Source: Microbispora sp. NBC_01189 (GTDB lineage: Bacteria; Actinomycetota; Actinomycetes; Streptosporangiales; Streptosporangiaceae). From it: a stretch of DNA of 64,000 nucleotides. The position numbers and the translations under genes were made by a program. Positions 56,042 to 64,000 of the stretch are shown here, one piece after another. The first letter of the stretch is position 1, and each line of letters begins with the position of its first letter. Location of the stretch: assembly GCF_036010665.1 (NCBI RefSeq), contig NZ_CP108581.1, forward strand, positions 6,319,501-6,383,500, read 5' to 3'. The notes under the pieces are model-generated. The model ran no database searches and was not told where the DNA came from. It saw nothing but the letters and a program-made list of their open reading frames with translations.

Positions 56042-56293
56042 TTACCCGAGGACGTCGGAGACGCTGGGCGGCCAGATGCCGACGTGCAGGAGCCGGTGCG
56101 CGTAGAAGTAGGCCACGAGCTGGCTGCGGTTGCTGCAGGCGAACTGGACGAGCAGCTTGCTGATCCGCTCGGCCACAGTGTACCGGCTGAGGTGCATCTC
56201 GCGGGCGATCTTCGTCGTCGTGTAGCCCCTGGCCAGCATGACGATCAGCCATCGGTCGCGATCGTTGATCAGGCCGTCGGAAACAAGGTCCAT
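56042..56293 (-). CDS. HTH-only LuxR-type regulator
   Basis: 83 residues consisting of a single LuxR/GerE-type helix-turn-helix (DRDRWLIVMLARGYTTTKIA, then HLSRYTVAERISKLLVQFAC, about residues 11-55) and a hydrophobic tail with YFYAHRLLHVGIWPP. No receiver or ligand domain. It is divergent from the ABC-YcaO operon, 273 bp away, so it is its probable regulator. The ribosome binding site is weak. A true small gene is likely because the HTH pattern is complete. Confidence 0.8.
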   Translation of the reverse strand: MDLVSDGLINDRDRWLIVMLARGYTTTKIAREMHLSRYTVAERISKLLVQFACSNRSQLVAYFYAHRLLHVGIWPPSVSDVLG

Positions 56294-56566
56294 GTGCAGT
56301 CCCGGTTCGGATCGCTCGATTGTGTGACCTGGTGAGGCCCCCCCTCTGCGGCGACCCTAGAAAGGCGCGCTTAACGATCGGTATGGCCGGGCCATGGCCT
56401 CGGTTATGGCCCTCCGGGCAACGCCGGTAGCCCACGTTTGTGGGGTTGTGTCACCTGCTCGTCCCCGGCTCATACTCGACCAGCGACGCGTTCCGAGCAG
56501 GCCGGGGGACGATCGGAGGGCGACTCACATCGCTGGGCAGCGGGAGGGCGAAGTGAAGGGCAGGCT
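56294..56566 (+). promoter_or_regulatory. Divergent region between LuxR-type gene and YcaO operon
   Basis: 273 bp that must hold the operon promoter; I cannot place convincing boxes. A 59-codon frame (56394-56573) ends inside the ABC gene start but has no ribosome binding site and is not called. Confidence 0.4.
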
Positions 56567-57508
56567 GTGTTGAGAGACGTCGTGACGGCCGTGGGGCTGA
56601 CCAAACGCTATCGGGGCAGCGAGAGACCGGCCGTGGACGACGTCTCCTTCGAGATCGCCCAGGGGGAGACCATCGGCCTCCTGGGCCCCAACGGCGCCGG
56701 CAAGACCACCCTGATCAAGATGATCTGCGGCGTCACCACTCCGACCTCCGGGGAGATCCGGGTCTTCGACGCCGATCCGGTGCGTCAGCCCGTCCTCGCC
56801 AAGAGCGGCATCGGCGCGATGCACCAGTCCGGTCCGTTCGACATGATGCTGCCGGCGCTGGACAACCTGCGCATCGCCGCCCGGTTCCGCGGGCTGCGGT
56901 GGCGCGACGTACGGCCCTGGGCGTTCGAGGTGGCGGACTTCCTCGGCGTCACCGGCTCGATGCAGCGCCTGGTGTTCCAGATGTCGGGTGGTCAGCGGCA
57001 GCGGCTCCAACTGGTGCGGGCGCTGCTCACCATCCCGCGGCTGCTCATCCTCGACGAGCCCTCCGCGGGCCTGGACGTCGCGGGGCGGCGCCAGGTCGAG
57101 CGGTTCGTGACCTGGCTGCGCGAGGAGCACGGCGTGACGGTGCTGTGGACCAGCCACCACATCGACGAACTGGAGCGCAACAGCCAGCGCGTGCTGGTCG
57201 TGGACAGCGGGCGGGTGGTGCGGTTCGCCAAGCCGCGCGAGCTCGTGGAGGAGTTCGGCAGCACCCACCTGCTGGTGACCGTCGAGGACCCGGCGTCGGG
57301 CGGCCTCGTGGCCGCCTGGGCGGAGTCGGCCGGGCTCCGGGCCAAGGCCGAGGACAACGAGGTGCGCATCGACGACGCGAAGGCACGCGACCTGCTGCCG
57401 GAGTTGTCCCGCTACTGCCAGGACCACGCCGTCGCGATCACCGGGGTGTCGACCGCCGTGGACTCGCTTGAGGAGGTCTTCCTCCGGATGACCGGGAACG
57501 AGGGCTGA
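56567..57508 (+). CDS. ABC exporter ATP-binding protein (DrrA/CcmA class)
   Basis: 313 residues with Walker A GPNGAGKTT near 42, Q-loop MHQSGPFD, signature MSGGQRQRLQL near 140, Walker B LLILDEPSAGLD near 160, and a C-terminal extension typical of drug/peptide exporters. The GTG at 56567 (or the adjacent TTG) follows AAGGG. It begins the operon and pairs with the permease 2 bp downstream; export of, or self-protection from, the cluster product is inferred. Confidence 0.93.
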   Translation: MLRDVVTAVGLTKRYRGSERPAVDDVSFEIAQGETIGLLGPNGAGKTTLIKMICGVTTPTSGEIRVFDADPVRQPVLAKSGIGAMHQSGPFDMMLPALDNLRIAARFRGLRWRDVRPWAFEVADFLGVTGSMQRLVFQMSGGQRQRLQLVRALLTIPRLLILDEPSAGLDVAGRRQVERFVTWLREEHGVTVLWTSHHIDELERNSQRVLVVDSGRVVRFAKPRELVEEFGSTHLLVTVEDPASGGLVAAWAESAGLRAKAEDNEVRIDDAKARDLLPELSRYCQDHAVAITGVSTAVDSLEEVFLRMTGNEG

Positions 57509-57510
57509 CG

Positions 57511-58323
57511 ATGGCCGCCGGGCTGCACTTCCACGCCGCGCCCCCCGCCCCCACGGCGCGGGCGACGGACCTGCTCGCGGTGCTCTACCGGGAGTACGCG
57601 CTGCTCGCCCGCAACCGGGTCTACCTGATCCTCGGCCTGACGCCGATGCTGGTCTACCTCCTGCTGGTGAACACCTCGCTGAGCAACCTCGTCAGGGTCG
57701 TCGACTACAAGGGCGTCAGCGTCGGGTTCGCGGTCTTCCTGCTCCCCATGACGCTGGCGATGTCGGTCGTGAGCGCGGCGGCCACTTCCGCCATGGCCGT
57801 GTTCCAGGAGGAGATGAGCGGGGTGGCGACCCAGCTGTGGTCCTACCCCATGCGCAGGTCGCGCTTCCTGCTCGGCAAGATGATCGCCGGTGTGTCGCTG
57901 GTGCTGGGGCAGACCCTGCTGGGCCTCGGCGTGGCGGCGCTCATCTTCGATCTGCCGTTCGGCCCGGAGAACTGGGTGGGGCTGCTGTCGGCGCTCGCGC
58001 TGTCCGCCCTGGCGCTCAACGGGCTGTACCTCGCGGCGGCGATCACGATCACGGACTACCAGGCCTTCATGGTGCTGTCGAACGTGTCGATGCCCGTCCT
58101 CGTCTTCAGCGCCCCGTCGATGTACACCACCGAGAGCATGCCGACGGTGCTGCAGTGGATCTCGGTGGTCAACCCGCTGACGTACGCGATCAACGGGATG
58201 CGGGACGCCGCGGTCTTCGGGGTCGGCGAGGCCTGGGTGGACCTGCTCGTGCTGGCGGTCATGGCGGTCGTCGGCTACACCGTGGGCGGCCGCGCCCTGA
58301 TCAACCGCGCACGCAACATCTGA
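57511..58323 (+). CDS. ABC-2 type exporter permease
   Basis: 270 residues with six membrane segments, first at about 42-60. The amphipathic segment YREYALLARNRVYLILGLTP before it and the VNPLTYAINGMRDAA motif near 220 are typical of ABC-2 permeases of the DrrB/NodJ type. Forms the exporter with the preceding gene. Confidence 0.93.
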   Translation: MAAGLHFHAAPPAPTARATDLLAVLYREYALLARNRVYLILGLTPMLVYLLLVNTSLSNLVRVVDYKGVSVGFAVFLLPMTLAMSVVSAAATSAMAVFQEEMSGVATQLWSYPMRRSRFLLGKMIAGVSLVLGQTLLGLGVAALIFDLPFGPENWVGLLSALALSALALNGLYLAAAITITDYQAFMVLSNVSMPVLVFSAPSMYTTESMPTVLQWISVVNPLTYAINGMRDAAVFGVGEAWVDLLVLAVMAVVGYTVGGRALINRARNI

Positions 58324-58331
58324 CACCCGGC

Positions 58332-58359
58332 ATCCAGCACTCGGTATCCAGCACTCGGC
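58332..58359 (+). repeat. 14-bp direct repeat
   Basis: ATCCAGCACTCGGT followed directly by ATCCAGCACTCGGC in the 90-bp gap between the permease and ycaO genes. Confidence 0.8.
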
Positions 58360-58413
58360 GCCTGACACGACCGGCCTGACAGGGCGCCTCACCTCGACAC
58401 GGGCAAGGGGACG

Positions 58414-59577
58414 ATGCGGACAGAAACCTCCTCCCACTCCTGGCTACTCTCCGGTTCCGACCAGTCGAAGGTCCGGCTGCCGGGGACGGACCGGGCCCGG
58501 GACCCCGCCGCCACACTGGAGATGGCTGGCCGCGCCGCGCGCCGGGCCGGGGTCACCCGGGTCGCGGACATCACCCGGCTCGACACCCTCGGCATCCCGA
58601 CGTACCAGGCGATCAGGCCTGCCGCGCGGACCCTCGCCGTCTCCCAGGGCAAGGGCGTCACGGCGGACCTGGCGAAGCTGTCCGCCATGATGGAGTCCGT
58701 CGAACTCTGGCACGCCGAGCAGCCCATGCGGCCGGTCACGACCGCGTCCCCCCGTGAGCTGGCCGGGGAACTGGGCTACGACGTGGGCGCCCTTCCGCGC
58801 TGCGCGCCGAGCCTGCTGCACGACGGGCTGCCGGTGGACTGGGTGGCCGCCAGATCACTCGCCGACGGCTCGCCGACGCTCGTTCCGATGGAGCTCGCGC
58901 AGTTCACCCTCGTCCGCAGGACGGGCTGGCACCCACCGGTGTTCTTCTCCTCGACCAACGGCCTGGCCAGCGGGAACACGCTGACGGAGGGCGTGCTGCA
59001 CGCGTTGTACGAGGTGATCGAACGGGACGCCGTCACCGTCTTCATGACCGGCGGCGACCGGGGAACCCTGGTCGACCCGCGCTCGCTCGGCTCGCCGGTC
59101 GTCGACGACCTGTGCGTCACGATGGAACGGGCCCGCGTCCGCATGGAGGTCAGGTCGCTGGCCTCGCCGACCGGGCTGCCGTGCTTTCTCGCCCGGATCA
59201 CCTGCGACGACTATCCGCCGCCGTTCCTCGGCTTCGGCTGCCACCTCAGCTCGGAGATCGCGCTCACCCGCGCCGTCACCGAGGCCGCGCAGGCGAGGCT
59301 GGGCTACATCGCGGGGTCGCGCGACGACCTGCACGCGAACGTCCACGACGGCCAGGGCGCGCCGCGACGACCGGAGCCGCCGCGGGAGGCCGGCGCGCGG
59401 ATCACGCCGTTGCACGCGCACGAGAGCCTGGTCGACGACCTGGACGACGTGGTGAAGCGCGCCACGGTCGCCTTCTCCCACGCGCCTCTCGTCGTCGACC
59501 TGACGCGGGAGGACCCCGGAGTGCCGGTCGTCAGGGTGCTGGCTCCGGGGAGCCGCGTCTGCCCGGAGGTCTTCTGA
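58414..59577 (+). CDS. ycaO: YcaO-domain protein
   Basis: 387 residues. The YcaO core is clear: SQGKGVTADLAKLSAMMESVELWHAEQP (quoted by position, 71-98), FFSSTNGLASGNTLTEG near 176, LHALYEVIERDAVT near 195, and SSEIALTRAVTEAAQARLGY near 277. YcaO enzymes use ATP to activate a peptide amide, forming azolines, amidines or thioamides. It lacks the Pro-rich C-terminus of azoline-forming members (ends CPEVF), and its stop overlaps the tfuA start, the pattern of thioamide-forming YcaO-TfuA pairs. AAGGGG lies just before the ATG. Confidence 0.94.
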   Translation: MRTETSSHSWLLSGSDQSKVRLPGTDRARDPAATLEMAGRAARRAGVTRVADITRLDTLGIPTYQAIRPAARTLAVSQGKGVTADLAKLSAMMESVELWHAEQPMRPVTTASPRELAGELGYDVGALPRCAPSLLHDGLPVDWVAARSLADGSPTLVPMELAQFTLVRRTGWHPPVFFSSTNGLASGNTLTEGVLHALYEVIERDAVTVFMTGGDRGTLVDPRSLGSPVVDDLCVTMERARVRMEVRSLASPTGLPCFLARITCDDYPPPFLGFGCHLSSEIALTRAVTEAAQARLGYIAGSRDDLHANVHDGQGAPRRPEPPREAGARITPLHAHESLVDDLDDVVKRATVAFSHAPLVVDLTREDPGVPVVRVLAPGSRVCPEVF

Positions 59578-60965
59578 TGAGCGGGGATGTTCTGACGAGC
59601 TCGCCGGACGTGGTCGTCTACGCCGGTCCGACGATCTCCGCCGACGAGGTCCGCGGCGTCGTGCCGCACGCGCGGGTGCGGCCGCCCGTCGCCCGGGGCG
59701 ACCTGCTCAGCGAGAGGTGGAGCCCGGACGACACCGCCGTCATCATCGACGGCTACTACCGCGAGAAGCTGGCGGTGGGCCACAAGGAGATCCTCTGGCT
59801 GATCGCCGAGGGCGTGCGCGTCGTCGGCGCGGCCAGCATGGGCGCCTTGCGCGCGGCCGAGCTGAGCCCGTACGGCATGACCGGCGCCGGGACCGTGTTC
59901 GACATGTACGCGACGGGCGAGGTCGACGGCGACGACGAGGTCGCGGTGCTGCACGGCCCCGCCGACCTCGGCTATCCGGCCGGGACGGTCGCGCTGGTCA
60001 ACCTCCGGTACGGCTGCCGGGAGGGGGCGAGGACGGGCCGGATCCCGGCGGAGGCCGGGGAGCGCATCGTCCGCGCGGCCAAGGCGATGCCGTTCGCGAA
60101 CCGCACCTGGCGCGACCTCGACGCGGTGGTGGACCCCGGCGACCGCGCCTGCCTGGAGACGCTGCGGCGGCTGATCGGCACGGGGGAGTGGGACGTCAAA
60201 CGGCTGGACGCGCTGGCCGCGCTGCGGGCGGCCGGCGAGCGCCGCGCCGAAAGGCCCGTCGAGCGGGCCGGTGAGAGGCCCGGCGAGCGGCCCGGTGCGG
60301 AGCCCGCGGCCTGGGCGGCCGACACGGCGCTGACGGGGATCACCCACTACGAGGCGCTGAAGTGGCGGTCGAGGCGCGAGTACGCGCCGGGCCGGTGGAT
60401 GACCGACCTCGACGTCGTGACCGCGGGGCGGCTGTTCGGCGACGACTACCCCCGCCTGCACGAGGAGACGCTGACCGGCCTGCTGACCGGCTTCGCCGCC
60501 GACCGGGGCCTCGACCTGGAGGCGTACGTCCGCGCCGGGCTCGGGATCGCCGGAGCCGAGCCCCTGCCGCCCGTCCTCGCGCCGTGGCTCACCGAGACCG
60601 AGCGGGCCGCCCTCCCTGTCGGAGAACAGCTGCGGCTGGTCATGGTGCGGGTCTGGCCGGTCTGGCAGTCGGAGGACTGGCGGCCGGTCGTGCTGGAACG
60701 GGTCCGGGAGTCGGGCCACTGGCAGGAATGGTCGCAGATCGTCGCCCGCGCCGACGAGGCGGCGGAGCGGACCCGTGGCCGGCTCGCCGTCCCGCCGCCG
60801 GAGATCTGCGCGAAGCTCTTCCTTCGTCACTGGCACGGGAAGGGGACGTCGGCCGAGGTGGAGATGGCCCGGCGCGGGTTCACCGGCCCGCAGGAGCTGG
60901 GTCACGCCGTCCGGAGGTTCTTCGCCCTCGACGTCCAGAACGCGCGTGCCTCCGGGAACCGGTGA
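59577..60965 (+). CDS. tfuA: TfuA-domain protein with C-terminal extension
   Basis: 462 residues. TfuA core at about 10-205: VVVYAGPTISADEV, IIDGYYREKLAVGHKEI, VVGAASMGALRAAELSPYGM, GTVFDMYATGEVDGDDEVAV. After a low-complexity Arg/Glu/Pro stretch (215-245) comes a second region of about 215 residues rich in Trp and helices that I cannot assign and that is longer than in minimal TfuA proteins. TfuA is known to partner YcaO for backbone thioamidation, probably by delivering sulfur. Starts with ATG overlapping the ycaO stop (TGATG). Confidence 0.93.
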   Translation: MSGDVLTSSPDVVVYAGPTISADEVRGVVPHARVRPPVARGDLLSERWSPDDTAVIIDGYYREKLAVGHKEILWLIAEGVRVVGAASMGALRAAELSPYGMTGAGTVFDMYATGEVDGDDEVAVLHGPADLGYPAGTVALVNLRYGCREGARTGRIPAEAGERIVRAAKAMPFANRTWRDLDAVVDPGDRACLETLRRLIGTGEWDVKRLDALAALRAAGERRAERPVERAGERPGERPGAEPAAWAADTALTGITHYEALKWRSRREYAPGRWMTDLDVVTAGRLFGDDYPRLHEETLTGLLTGFAADRGLDLEAYVRAGLGIAGAEPLPPVLAPWLTETERAALPVGEQLRLVMVRVWPVWQSEDWRPVVLERVRESGHWQEWSQIVARADEAAERTRGRLAVPPPEICAKLFLRHWHGKGTSAEVEMARRGFTGPQELGHAVRRFFALDVQNARASGNR

Positions 60966-61049
60966 CGCCGGGCCGGCGCGGGGGCCCGGCGCGGGGCCGG
61001 CTGTGGTCCGTGTCCCGGAACGCCGGTGAGTCCGCGTGAGGAGAGGGTC

Positions 61050-62318
61050 GTGACCGTGACCACGCCCGGGCAGCCGTCCGGCCCGGCCGCGCAGCCGTTC
61101 GACCCGGCGGCCGCGCGGCACCGGCCGGACCCCCACCCGTTGTTCCACCGCATGCGCGAGCACACGCCGGTCTACCGGTATGTGGGCCCGGCGAGCGGCC
61201 GGGTGCTGTGGTACCTGACGCGGTACGCCGACGTGCAGCGTGCGCTGCTCGATCCGGACGTCGGGCGTCAGCTCGACCGGCTGCCGCCCGAGCTCGCCGC
61301 GCCGCACCGCCGGGCCGAGATGCGCGACCCGCTGGCCATACTGCGGCGCAACGTCTTCCACCTCGATCCGCCCGACCACACCCGCATCCGCAGGCTGATG
61401 GCGCCGGCCTTCGGCGCCCGTACGGTGGCCGCGCTGGAGCGGCGCGTCCACCGGGTCGCCGGCGAGCTCGTGGGCGGCATGGCGGCGACGGCGGCGGCGG
61501 GCGGCGAGGCCGACCTGATCCGGGAGCTGGCGCTGCCGCTGCCGGTCCTGGTCGTCGCCGACCTGCTCGGCCTGCCCCCCGAGGACCGCGCCCGGCTGCG
61601 CGGGTGGAGCGACGAGATCGTGGGCAGCGGGGACGCGGGCCGGATCCGCCGGGCCGGCCTGGAGTTCGCCGCGTACGCCAATGAGAGGATCGACGAGCGG
61701 CTGGCGCACCCGGGGGAGGACCTGCTGAGCCGGCTCGCCGAGGCCGAGCGGACGGGCGGGATCAGCCGCGCCGAGCTGGTCTCCAGCGTGTTCCAGCTGC
61801 TGCTCGCCGGGGACGAGACGACCGTCAACCTGATCGGGAACGGCATGCTGGAGTTGCTGCGGCACCCCCGCCAGATGGAGCGGCTTCGGGCGCGCCCGGA
61901 GCTGATCGGCTCCATGGTCGAGGAGGCGCTGCGGTACAACGGCCCGGTCGGCCACTCCCGCCCGCTGTACGTCCTCGCCGACGTGGAGATCGGCGGGACC
62001 GTGATCCCCCAGGGGGACGTGGTCGTGCCGGTGCTGCTGGCGGCCAACCGCGACCCTGCGGTCTTCCCCCGGCCGGACGTCTTCGACATCGGCCGCAGCC
62101 CCAACCGGCATCTGGGCTTCGGCCACGGCGCGCACTTCTGCCTCGGCGCTGCGCTCGCGCGGCTGCAGGCCGCGGCCGCCATCGGGGCGCTGGTGCGGCG
62201 GTTCCCCGGCATCGCCCTCGCGGTCGATCCCGCCGGCCTGGAGTGGACGCCCGACCTGTTCCTGCACGGCGTACGCCGCCTGCCGCTGCGGCTGCACCTG
62301 GAGGCGGGCGCCGCGTGA
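61050..62318 (+). CDS. Cytochrome P450 of the YcaO operon
   Basis: 422 residues: I-helix LLAGDETTVNLI near 257, K-helix EEALRYN near 292, heme loop FGHGAHFCLGAAL near 360. Start GTG at 61050 with GGAGAGGG; GTG at 61056 is the alternative. It is 84 bp after tfuA and in the same operon, so it likely oxidises the peptide or other product. It is not closely similar to the P450 at 45479. Confidence 0.94.
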   Translation: MTVTTPGQPSGPAAQPFDPAAARHRPDPHPLFHRMREHTPVYRYVGPASGRVLWYLTRYADVQRALLDPDVGRQLDRLPPELAAPHRRAEMRDPLAILRRNVFHLDPPDHTRIRRLMAPAFGARTVAALERRVHRVAGELVGGMAATAAAGGEADLIRELALPLPVLVVADLLGLPPEDRARLRGWSDEIVGSGDAGRIRRAGLEFAAYANERIDERLAHPGEDLLSRLAEAERTGGISRAELVSSVFQLLLAGDETTVNLIGNGMLELLRHPRQMERLRARPELIGSMVEEALRYNGPVGHSRPLYVLADVEIGGTVIPQGDVVVPVLLAANRDPAVFPRPDVFDIGRSPNRHLGFGHGAHFCLGAALARLQAAAAIGALVRRFPGIALAVDPAGLEWTPDLFLHGVRRLPLRLHLEAGAA

Positions 62319-62361
62319 CACCCGCCCCGCGCCTGTCAGAGCCTTCGGAAGGAACCGGCCC

Positions 62362-63396
62362 ATGAGCGAACTACCGCGAGGCCTCGCGGGGCAGGCGAAC
62401 CTGTCCCGGATGGCCTTCGGCTACGCCACCTCGCAGATCCTCTACGCCGCCGTCCGGCTCGGCGTGCCGGACCTGCTCGCGGAGGAGGCCGTACCGGTCG
62501 CGCGGCTCGCGGAGCGCACCGGGTCGGACCCCGGCGCGCTGCACCGGCTGCTCCGCGCGCTGGTGGTGCTCGGCGTGGCGGAGGAGGGGGAGCCCGGATG
62601 CTTCACGCTGACGCCGCAGGGACGGCCGCTCTGCGCCGGCCACCCGTGGTCGATGCGCTCCAGCCTCCTGCTGCTCGGCGACCCGGCGACGTGGCAGGCG
62701 TGGGGGGCGCTGACCCACAGTGTGCGGACCGGTGAGACGGCGTGGGACCACGCGCACGGCAGCCCGCTGTTCGACCACCTCGCCCGCCACCCGGACCTGT
62801 CGGCGGTGTTCAACAGGGCGATGCGCGAGGGCACCGAACGGATCGCGCCCGCGCTCCCCAAGGCGTACGACTTCACCGGCGCGCAGACCGTGGTCGACGT
62901 CGGCGGCGGCAACGGCACGCTGCTGGCGGCGGTGCTCGCGGCCGTCCCGGGCCTCAAGGGGATCCTGTTCGACACCGCCGAGGGGGTCGCCGGCGCCGAC
63001 GAGGAGTTCCGGCGGGCGGGGTTGTCGGACAGGTGCGTCATCGAGACCGGCGACTTCTTCGAGGCCGTGCCCGGGGGTGACGTCATGCTGGTCAAGGGCG
63101 TGCTGCACGACTGGGACGACCGGCGCTGCGTCGACCTGCTGCGTGGCTGCCGCCGGTCGATCGCGGCGGACGGGCGCCTGCTCGTGCTGGAGCCGGTGAT
63201 GCCGTCCGCCCTCGGCACGCCGGAGGCCGCCGGGGCCGTCATGAGCGACATCGCGATGCTCGTCTACACCGGCGGCCGGGAACGCGGCAGGGCCGAGTTC
63301 GCCGACCTGCTCGCCGCGGCCGGGTTCGACCTTACCGAGGTGACGCCGCCGCTCGGCGGCTCGGAGATCCGGATCCTCGTTGCGCGGCCCGCCTGA
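62362..63396 (+). CDS. SAM-dependent O-methyltransferase
   Basis: 344 residues of the acetylserotonin/carminomycin O-methyltransferase type: N-terminal dimerisation winged helix at about 10-95, SAM-binding VVDVGGGNGTLLAAVL near 178, acidic DLLRGC region and catalytic-His loop LVKGVLHDWDD near 245. AAGGA precedes the ATG. Last gene of the YcaO operon, followed by a 13-bp-stem hairpin. It would methylate a hydroxyl, perhaps one put in by the P450. Confidence 0.94.
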   Translation: MSELPRGLAGQANLSRMAFGYATSQILYAAVRLGVPDLLAEEAVPVARLAERTGSDPGALHRLLRALVVLGVAEEGEPGCFTLTPQGRPLCAGHPWSMRSSLLLLGDPATWQAWGALTHSVRTGETAWDHAHGSPLFDHLARHPDLSAVFNRAMREGTERIAPALPKAYDFTGAQTVVDVGGGNGTLLAAVLAAVPGLKGILFDTAEGVAGADEEFRRAGLSDRCVIETGDFFEAVPGGDVMLVKGVLHDWDDRRCVDLLRGCRRSIAADGRLLVLEPVMPSALGTPEAAGAVMSDIAMLVYTGGRERGRAEFADLLAAAGFDLTEVTPPLGGSEIRILVARPA

Positions 63397-63593: not shown

Positions 63594-64000
63594 TCAGGGG
63601 GTCGCGGTGGCGAGGCGTGAGCGCAGCCACGCGGCCAGGCCGGGGTACTGCCCGATCGCCTCCTCGCTGGTGAGGAGGGGCTCCGGCCGTCCGGTCAGCA
63701 CCCGGGCGATCTCCGGCCTGTCCGTCGCGGTGTCATCGGAGAGCAATGTCTGGGCGGCGAAGAGCCCGGCGGCGATCCGCGGGCTGCTCAGCTTCGCCTG
63801 CGCGAGGCGGGTGCGGATCTCGCGTTCGAAGGCGTTCGGCGCGCGTCGCGGCGCATCGTCGCGTCCGGTCCCCGCACCGGCCCTTTCCACGGCGCCTGCA
63901 CCGGCCCTGCCAGCGGCACCTGCACCGGCTGTATCAATGGTGCCTGCCCTGGCACCTGCGCCGGTACCTTCAGCCCACTCTCCTGTGCCCGCGCCGGCCC
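63594..64000 (-). CDS. Hypothetical protein, 5' end outside window
   Basis: 135 codons open to the right edge. The visible N-terminal part is an Ala/Gly/Thr-rich low-complexity run encoded by short DNA repeats (GGTGCAGGTGCC-like); the C-terminal 85 residues (FEREIRTRLAQAKLSSPRIA, then QTLLSDDTATDRPEIARVL, ending AAWLRSRLATATP) look like a folded helical domain. No family recognised. Convergent with the YcaO operon. Confidence 0.6.
   Translation of the reverse strand, partial: AGAGTGEWAEGTGAGARAGTIDTAGAGAAGRAGAGAVERAGAGTGRDDAPRRAPNAFEREIRTRLAQAKLSSPRIAAGLFAAQTLLSDDTATDRPEIARVLTGRPEPLLTSEEAIGQYPGLAAWLRSRLATATP

What the first reader, a model, noticed from the sequence alone, without database searches (positions are those of the whole stretch)
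56042..63396. YcaO-TfuA-P450-O-methyltransferase operon: candidate for an undescribed RiPP-type pathway
Seen: exporter ATPase and permease, ycaO overlapping tfuA, a P450 and an O-methyltransferase in one tight same-strand run, with an HTH-only LuxR gene divergent. Known: YcaO with TfuA installs backbone thioamides (methanogen McrA, thiovarsolin-type peptides); YcaO alone makes azolines or amidines. Inference: a thioamidated (or azole) peptide further oxidised and O-methylated, then exported. The extra C-terminal half of the TfuA protein and the absence of the azoline-type partner proteins (E1-like/ocin-ThiF, dehydrogenase) set it apart from standard azole clusters. The combination with P450 and a carminomycin-type O-methyltransferase is not one I know as a characterised product class.
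Basis: partly seen in the sequence, partly recalled or inferred. Interest (0 to 1): 0.82.

Follow-up and report, generated by a model that had tools for sequence, protein, structure and literature searches.

The report
Thioamide–sactipeptide hybrid gene cluster

Summary
Observation confirmed: LuxR-type regulator, ABC exporter, YcaO, TfuA, P450 and O-methyltransferase lie where stated. The cluster runs past the window end: a convergent operon encodes a flavin monooxygenase (FMO), a stand-alone PqqD-type RRE, a radical SAM/SPASM enzyme (NCBIfam StsB sactipeptide maturase, 920 bits) and a precursor of the StsA sactipeptide family (143 bits, cut-off 75) with a WxxP RRE site and core CLCGAWSGSGSG. 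All 26 of 297 family genomes with this TfuA carry StsB in the same locus; P450 is kept in 25, OMT in 20. One operator (CCCACGTTTGTGGGGTT) stands before both operons; in 38 chosen genomes all 48 matches of a strict form lie in these clusters, none in 11 genomes without the cluster. Best reading: a hybrid RiPP, a sactipeptide-type thioether peptide further thioamidated by YcaO–TfuA, oxidised and often O-methylated. Core Trp occurs in 37 of 37 clusters with the FMO and 0 of 14 without (one evolutionary change), so Trp is a plausible FMO target. Malit et al. 2021 already noted clusters of this make-up. New variant of a known kind; chemistry untested.

The parts
56042..56293 (-). HTH-only LuxR-type regulator (83 aa), candidate activator of both operons (inference)
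   Evidence: GerE PF00196 28 bits; present in 26 of 26 loci with the TfuA ortholog
56431..56447 (+). Operator CCCACGTTTGTGGGGTT before the exporter-ycaO-tfuA operon; an identical 17-base copy stands before the precursor gene outside the window (genome C1:6386963-6386979, -)
   Evidence: CCCACNNNNGTGGGGTT has 3 matches in 7.37 Mb, two of them these
56567..57508 (+). ABC exporter ATPase (DrrA-like); start inferred
   Evidence: PF00005 105 bits; DrrA model 216 bits, below its cut-off of 312; 26 of 26 loci
57511..58323 (+). ABC-2 exporter permease
   Evidence: PF01061 81 bits; 26 of 26 loci
58414..59577 (+). YcaO, thioamide type by similarity, no PxPxP tail; the only YcaO match in the genome
   Evidence: PF02624 225 bits; McrA-glycine thioamidation model 197.5 bits (cut-off 365), SagD cyclodehydratase 101 bits (cut-off 219); nearest solved structure MJ1094; one match in genome
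59577..60965 (+). TfuA; N-terminal half is the known TfuA fold, C-terminal half modelled as helical
   Evidence: PF07812 138 bits; model mean pLDDT 84; residues 8-224 match 6xp8, Z 24.8, rmsd 2.6, 208 aligned
61026..62318 (+). Cytochrome P450 (nearest solved: CYP267B1, PikC)
   Evidence: PF00067 111.5 bits; 25 of 26 loci
62362..63396 (+). SAM-dependent O-methyltransferase, nearest solved structure CalO6
   Evidence: PF00891 161 bits; 20 of 26 loci
63594..64000 (-). 3' end of the flavin monooxygenase gene (Lsd18/MonCI-like). Whole gene genome C1:6383094-6384623(-); then, all on - and outside the window, PqqD RRE about C1:6384742-6385074, radical SAM StsB about C1:6385056-6386540, StsA-type precursor C1:6386614-6386892
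   Evidence: locus L002 = genome C1:6372501-6392500

Best explanation
A two-operon RiPP cluster in a Microbispora genome. An StsA-type precursor (leader with WxxP site, core about KCLCGAWSGSGSGAAE) is bound by the stand-alone PqqD RRE. The StsB-family radical SAM enzyme is expected to cross-link the core cysteines to backbone alpha carbons (sactipeptide thioethers). YcaO with TfuA exchanges a backbone amide oxygen for sulfur (thioamide). The Lsd18/MonCI-type flavin monooxygenase and the P450 oxidise the core, the conserved Trp being the best candidate target, and the O-methyltransferase caps a new hydroxyl. The ABC pair exports the product. A short LuxR-type protein probably switches on both operons through the shared CCCAC-N4-GTGGG operator. 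Shown: gene content, precursor, conservation, shared operator. Inferred: each chemical step, their order, the Trp target, the export role and the identity of the operator-binding protein.
For: rSAM scores 920 bits against the StsB model (cut-off 625), the precursor 143 against the StsA-related model (cut-off 75). WxxP is in 26 of 26 aligned precursors from 24 loci; binding of the RRE StsC to WxxP of StsA is experimental in PMC12710340 (passages). All 26 full-length TfuA genomes are among the 30 of 297 StsB genomes, in one locus. Same operator before both operons: upstream of the ATPase in 25 of 27 and of the precursor in 23 of 25 family loci; strict form in 26 of 27 cluster genomes and 0 of 11 others, all 48 matches on the cluster contigs, reversed control 0. 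In Celeribacter persicus precursor, rSAM, PqqD, FMO, ycaO and tfuA form one same-strand run. YcaO and TfuA resemble the McrA thioamidation pair. FMO resembles Lsd18 and MonCI. Core Trp in 37 of 37 FMO+ and 0 of 14 FMO- clusters.
Against: No product, no mass spectrum. Five FMO+ clusters (four Streptomyces, N. candida) have near-identical cores without ycaO-tfuA within about 10 kb (N. candida has a different YcaO-TfuA pair elsewhere), so the core shows no signature or site of thioamidation. Trp and FMO co-vary through one evolutionary change only. P450 and OMT are missing in some clusters. The core lacks the third Cys of StsA. The YcaO match to the McrA model is below its cut-off. The operator is not universal: none before the ATPase in the three Winogradskya/Actinoplanes loci, none at all in Celeribacter and Spongiactinospora TRM90649, none before the precursor in N. 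typhae. In five Herbidospora genomes the TfuA match runs over an in-frame TGA, so their TfuA ends earlier or is changed.
Confidence: 0.72

Rival explanations
1. YcaO with TfuA installs azolines/azoles or amidines on the StsA-type core instead of thioamides.
For: YcaO enzymes make azolines and amidines (established knowledge); the core holds Cys and Ser that could cyclise.
Against: No E1-like partner or FMN dehydrogenase among the ten operon proteins scanned (the rest of the genome was not searched for them); no PxPxP tail (sequence); better score to the thioamidation model than to SagD; TfuA partner present.
Confidence: 0.12
2. Two neighbouring but separate pathways: a sactipeptide operon and an unrelated small-molecule YcaO–TfuA–P450–OMT operon.
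For: The operons are convergent in most family loci, and five FMO+ StsB clusters lack ycaO-tfuA.
Against: 26 of 26 co-occurrence in one locus, an operator shared by both operons and nearly confined to the cluster, one-strand arrangement in Celeribacter, Winogradskya, Actinoplanes and Spongiactinospora TRM90649.
Confidence: 0.07
3. The rSAM makes C-beta/C-gamma (ranthipeptide) thioethers or other cross-links rather than sactionines.
For: antiSMASH labelled such clusters ranthipeptides (Malit et al. 2021, passages).
Against: The rSAM is well above the StsB sactipeptide cut-off and the precursor above the StsA one.
Confidence: 0.2
4. FMO acts elsewhere than on Trp and the Trp is only a recognition element or serves the P450.
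For: The closest solved relatives are polyether-pathway epoxidases by name; the Trp-FMO link is one event.
Against: Trp is the only invariant aromatic residue of the core, 37 of 37.
Confidence: 0.4

Closest known systems
StsA/StsB/StsC sactipeptide system of Streptomyces sparsogenes (Precord et al. 2023, cited in PMC12710340; paper itself not held)
   Same: Precursor and rSAM families, stand-alone PqqD-type RRE, WxxP site 16 residues before the first core Cys in both this precursor and StsA, ABC pair. I identified StsA in L107:9746-9880 by the residues that PMC12710340 numbers; its accession was not fetched
   Different: No FMO, YcaO, TfuA, P450 or OMT match within the 21 kb read (L107); core CSCDCSGG has three Cys and no Trp; 45-aa precursor against 92 aa
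Thioamidated RiPP gene cluster families with rSAM and PqqD, Fig. 5B of Malit et al. 2021 (PMC8120280)
   Same: tfuA-ycaO, rSAM/SPASM, stand-alone PqqD, P450, O-methyltransferase, precursor with several Cys and Ser; genera Sphaerisporangium, Microbispora, Herbidospora (passages)
   Different: The passages seen give no product, speak of ranthipeptides, and do not mention an FMO, an operator, StsA/StsB or Trp; figures and supplements not seen
Thiovarsolin and thioviridamide-type clusters (Santos-Aberturas et al. 2019, PMC6511847, passages only; otherwise recalled)
   Same: Adjacent YcaO and TfuA of thioamide type
   Different: The words P450, methyltransferase and sactipeptide do not occur in that main text
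Methanogen McrA-glycine thioamidation pair YcaO–TfuA (PDB 6pe3, 6xp8)
   Same: YcaO and the TfuA N-terminal domain
   Different: Here the presumed substrate is a small precursor peptide, and TfuA has an extra C-terminal half

Membership tests
StsA/StsB-type sactipeptides | Precursor scores above the StsA-related model cut-off | tested here: met
   143.3 bits, cut-off 75
StsA/StsB-type sactipeptides | rSAM/SPASM maturase above the StsB model cut-off, with CX3CX2C | tested here: met
   919.7 bits, cut-off 625; CNLRCPYC invariant in the 6 sequences aligned
StsA/StsB-type sactipeptides | RRE recognition motif WxxP before the core | tested here: met
   26 of 26 aligned precursors; binding itself not tested
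StsA/StsB-type sactipeptides | CxCxC core as in StsA | tested here: not met
   CxC-[GSA]-x-W in 37 of 37 FMO+ clusters; third Cys absent. So a related subfamily, not StsA itself
StsA/StsB-type sactipeptides | Cys S to C-alpha thioether | not testable with these tools
   needs mass spectrometry or NMR
YcaO–TfuA thioamidated RiPPs | Adjacent ycaO and tfuA | tested here: met
   one-base overlap in the window; neighbours in 26 of 26 loci
YcaO–TfuA thioamidated RiPPs | Precursor co-encoded | tested here: met
   StsA-type precursor in 26 of 26: 24 in the fetched stretches, 2 in longer named contigs L075 and L077
YcaO–TfuA thioamidated RiPPs | Backbone thioamide in the product | not testable with these tools
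   needs mass spectrometry
Linear azole peptides (TOMM) | E1-like/ocin-ThiF partner and FMN dehydrogenase in the cluster | tested here: not met
   absent among the ten operon proteins scanned; rest of genome not searched
Lsd18/MonCI flavin epoxidases (FMO) | Sequence homology over most of the protein | tested here: met
   E 3.9e-92 over residues 3-380 of 509
Lsd18/MonCI flavin epoxidases (FMO) | Olefin epoxidation | not testable with these tools
   needs an assay

The most novel reading that the evidence does not exclude
A widespread hybrid RiPP class in which one small core (CxCGxWSGSG) receives sactionine thioethers, a backbone thioamide, an Lsd18-type flavin oxidation (2,3-epoxidation or hydroxylation) of its invariant Trp, P450 oxidation and O-methylation, under a dedicated operator found almost nowhere else in these genomes.
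Probability: 0.3. Interest if true: 0.78.

Novelty: new variant of a known kind. Interest (0 to 1): 0.58.

Why it matters
It would join two RiPP chemistries (radical SAM thioethers and YcaO–TfuA thioamides) on one 16-residue core, add a flavin epoxidase-like enzyme to peptide tailoring, and give a testable natural series: clusters that lack OMT, P450 or ycaO-tfuA show which step each enzyme adds. The operator gives a handle to switch silent clusters on.

Tried and rejected

FMO as a QhpG/GoxB/LodB-type cofactor maturase: NCBIfam hits were weak (about 1e-7 to 1e-4); Lsd18/MonCI is far closer, so I dropped that reading.

TfuA C-terminal half: folded as part of the whole protein only; the structure search rows span residues 4-225, the C-terminal part is barely tested, and I make no claim of a new fold.

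OMT against core Ala (CxCGAW): 22 of 25 OMT+ against 0 of 12 OMT- clusters, but only 2 independent pairs on supported branches (4 on all), sign test not significant. Kept as a lead only.

Core signature of thioamidation: none, because clusters without ycaO-tfuA have near-identical cores.

Operator search: 14 pairs of upstream regions were compared, one exceeded its 200 shuffles. No such site was seen before the ATP-grasp or the short aroma-sacti gene of the second locus.

Literature: Precord et al. 2023 is not held, so what StsB makes was not read; the name sactipeptide rests on NCBIfam and PMC12710340.

Rows dropped or set by hand: of 80 loci I used the 49 with 50% identity or more (L074-L122) and left out 31 weak ones. 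A2 used the window TfuA and 19 of the 30 named TfuA listed; three of the 30 (L090, L091, L093) hold an in-frame stop and were left out unmended. The 51 tree rows are these 49, L002 and L068. L077 was scored as lacking ycaO only because its stretch ends there; I set it to present by hand. For L117 the core search gave two frames; I took the short one. The 38 genomes were chosen by me (27 with the FMO+ cluster, 8 other Microbispora, 3 with plain StsB), not at random.
Full report
What is there. The gene run 56042-63396 is as described: short LuxR-type regulator, DrrA/DrrB-like exporter, YcaO, TfuA, P450, O-methyltransferase. ycaO and tfuA overlap by one base. The genome is 7.37 Mb in one contig and has one YcaO match. 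The named relatives of its rSAM protein place it in Microbispora (97% identity to M. amethystogenes).

The locus is larger than the finding. I fetched 20 kb around the operon. Downstream, on the minus strand and mostly outside the window, stand an FAD monooxygenase, a PqqD-domain protein, and a radical SAM/SPASM protein that scores 919.7 bits against the NCBIfam StsB sactipeptide maturase (cut-off 625). Upstream of it is a 92-aa ORF that scores 143.3 bits against the StsA-related sactipeptide precursor model (cut-off 75).

Conservation. A search of 297 genomes of the same family with the whole TfuA found 26 genomes, this one included, with a full-length relative of 63% identity or more (in G191 as two pieces of 72% and 67%; in five Herbidospora genomes over one in-frame TGA). 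In all 26 the LuxR, both ABC genes, YcaO, TfuA, FMO, PqqD and rSAM are in one 20-kb stretch; P450 in 25, OMT in 20. The precursor is in 24 of the 26 stretches and, for the other two genomes, in longer named contigs (L075, L077). The StsB model is over its cut-off in 30 of the same 297 genomes: the 26, plus G233, G013, G153 and G283. G233 (Nonomuraea candida) has two precursors, FMO and P450 but no ycaO-tfuA at the locus, and a different YcaO-TfuA pair elsewhere; the other three are of the plain StsA kind. The 15 weaker TfuA matches that I opened lack the block.

Precursor. An alignment of 26 precursors from 24 loci shows a conserved leader, an invariant WxxP and a core CxC-[GA]-x-W-S-G-[SA]-G. 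In this precursor and in the S. sparsogenes StsA the first core Cys comes 16 residues after the W. PMC12710340 reports that StsC, a stand-alone PqqD-type RRE, binds WxxP of StsA (passages).

Modular distribution. Among 51 StsB clusters (49 named, the window's and L068) the FMO is in 37 and absent in 14; on a quick rSAM tree this is one change, support 100. All 37 with FMO have the core Trp and two Cys; all 14 without have CxCxC cores without Trp. This is one event, so it suggests, but does not prove, that the FMO works on Trp. Within the 37, ycaO changes at least twice (absent in a Streptomyces group of four and in N. candida). OMT goes with Ala before Trp, 22 of 25 against 0 of 12, but with too few independent changes to test. 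Celeribacter persicus, an alphaproteobacterium (recalled), has precursor, rSAM, PqqD, FMO, ycaO and tfuA in one run, without close relatives of the LuxR, exporter, P450 or OMT within 10 kb.

Shared operator. Of 14 pairs of upstream regions compared, one, exporter operon against precursor, exceeded all 200 shuffles; the match centres on CCCACGTTTGTGGGGTT. The pattern CCCACNNNNGTGGGGTT has three matches in the genome: these two and one with another spacer at 4,647,774; the reversed pattern has none. In 27 family loci the CCCAC-N4-GTGGG palindrome lies within 400 bp upstream of the ATPase in 25 of 27, and of the precursor in 23 of the 25 whose stretch holds one. In ten further FMO+ loci it is before the precursor in 8 of 10, and before the ATPase in 2 of the 5 that have this ATPase: the three Winogradskya/Actinoplanes loci have it only before the precursor. 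The 14 FMO- loci have none. The stricter CCCACNTTYGTGGGGTTG was sought in 38 chosen whole genomes: 48 matches, all on the cluster contigs around the cluster genes, in 26 of 27 genomes with the FMO+ cluster (G121 has none) and 0 of 11 without it; reversed control 0. In this genome only the exporter-side copy fits that stricter form. A conserved CATACTC box follows about 26 bases after the palindrome in most family sites, like a -10 box (reading it as a promoter is inference). So the two operons look like one regulon. That the LuxR-type protein binds there is inference.

Enzymes. YcaO scores better against the McrA-glycine thioamidation model (197.5 bits, below its cut-off of 365) than against SagD (101), and its nearest solved structure is MJ1094. 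TfuA residues 8-224 match the M. acetivorans TfuA 6xp8 (Z 24.8, rmsd 2.6, 208 aligned). The FMO is nearest to Lsd18/LasC and MonCI (E 3.9e-92), which epoxidise polyketide olefins (function recalled).

Regulatory companion. In 17 of the 19 family loci outside Microbispora an ATP-grasp protein with a SARP regulator (SARP seen in 16 of these 17), a short peptide with the same 'aroma-sacti' domain as the precursor leader, and a cyclase-ATPase regulator lie within the 20-kb stretch (domains). In this genome they sit apart, at 3.02 Mb. Among 15 Microbispora genomes the second locus is in 7 of 7 with the cluster and 1 of 8 without it (compared); the exception, G178, has a P450 gene and weak rSAM-like and S9 peptidase-like matches between its parts.

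Known or new. Malit et al. 2021 (PMC8120280, passages) describe two gene cluster families from Sphaerisporangium, Microbispora and Herbidospora with tfuA-ycaO, rSAM/SPASM, stand-alone PqqD, P450 and O-methyltransferase; very probably the same family. NCBIfam has models for the precursor and maturase. The paper searches named under Tried and rejected listed no product. New here, as far as I could see: the link to StsA/StsB, the FMO and its tie to the core Trp, the operator, the modular losses and the Celeribacter copy.

Verdict. Real, conserved and coherent; a hybrid RiPP pathway whose chemistry is predicted, not shown. New variant of a known kind. On rechecking, facts were narrowed but none asked for a change of the odds.

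Noticed in passing
genome C1:3017509-3023534 (L164:7010-13035): Unlinked second locus with ATP-grasp, SARP, short aroma-sacti-domain peptide and cyclase/ATPase regulator; in 17 of 19 other family loci such genes lie beside the cluster. Present in 7 of 7 Microbispora with the cluster, 1 of 8 without.
   Followed up: partly
L165:3517-17086 (G178): The same regulator set flanks a P450 gene (37% identity) and weak rSAM-like and S9 peptidase-like matches, so the regulator set may serve more than one pathway.
   Followed up: partly
L104:13054-14922, L097:13185-15026, L098:13139-14992: A prolyl oligopeptidase-type S9 peptidase follows the FMO gene in 13 of the loci searched (four Streptomyces, Winogradskya/Actinoplanes, N. 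candida and others, some genomes counted twice; Pfam checked for L104 only); a candidate leader peptidase, with no match near the Microbispora cluster.
   Followed up: partly
L097:20924-21412: In a Streptomyces cluster the short LuxR-type HTH and a leader-like aroma-sacti domain lie in one open frame, hinting that the leader-like domain has a regulatory role.
   Followed up: no
L106:9408-15605 (Celeribacter persicus): A minimal version of the pathway whose genes have lower third-position GC (0.56-0.66) than the other frames of the locus (0.67-0.85), as after horizontal transfer.
   Followed up: partly
tfuA of G173, G083, G149, G109, G163 (Herbidospora-type genomes): The TfuA match runs over one in-frame TGA; the protein may end earlier there.
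   Followed up: no
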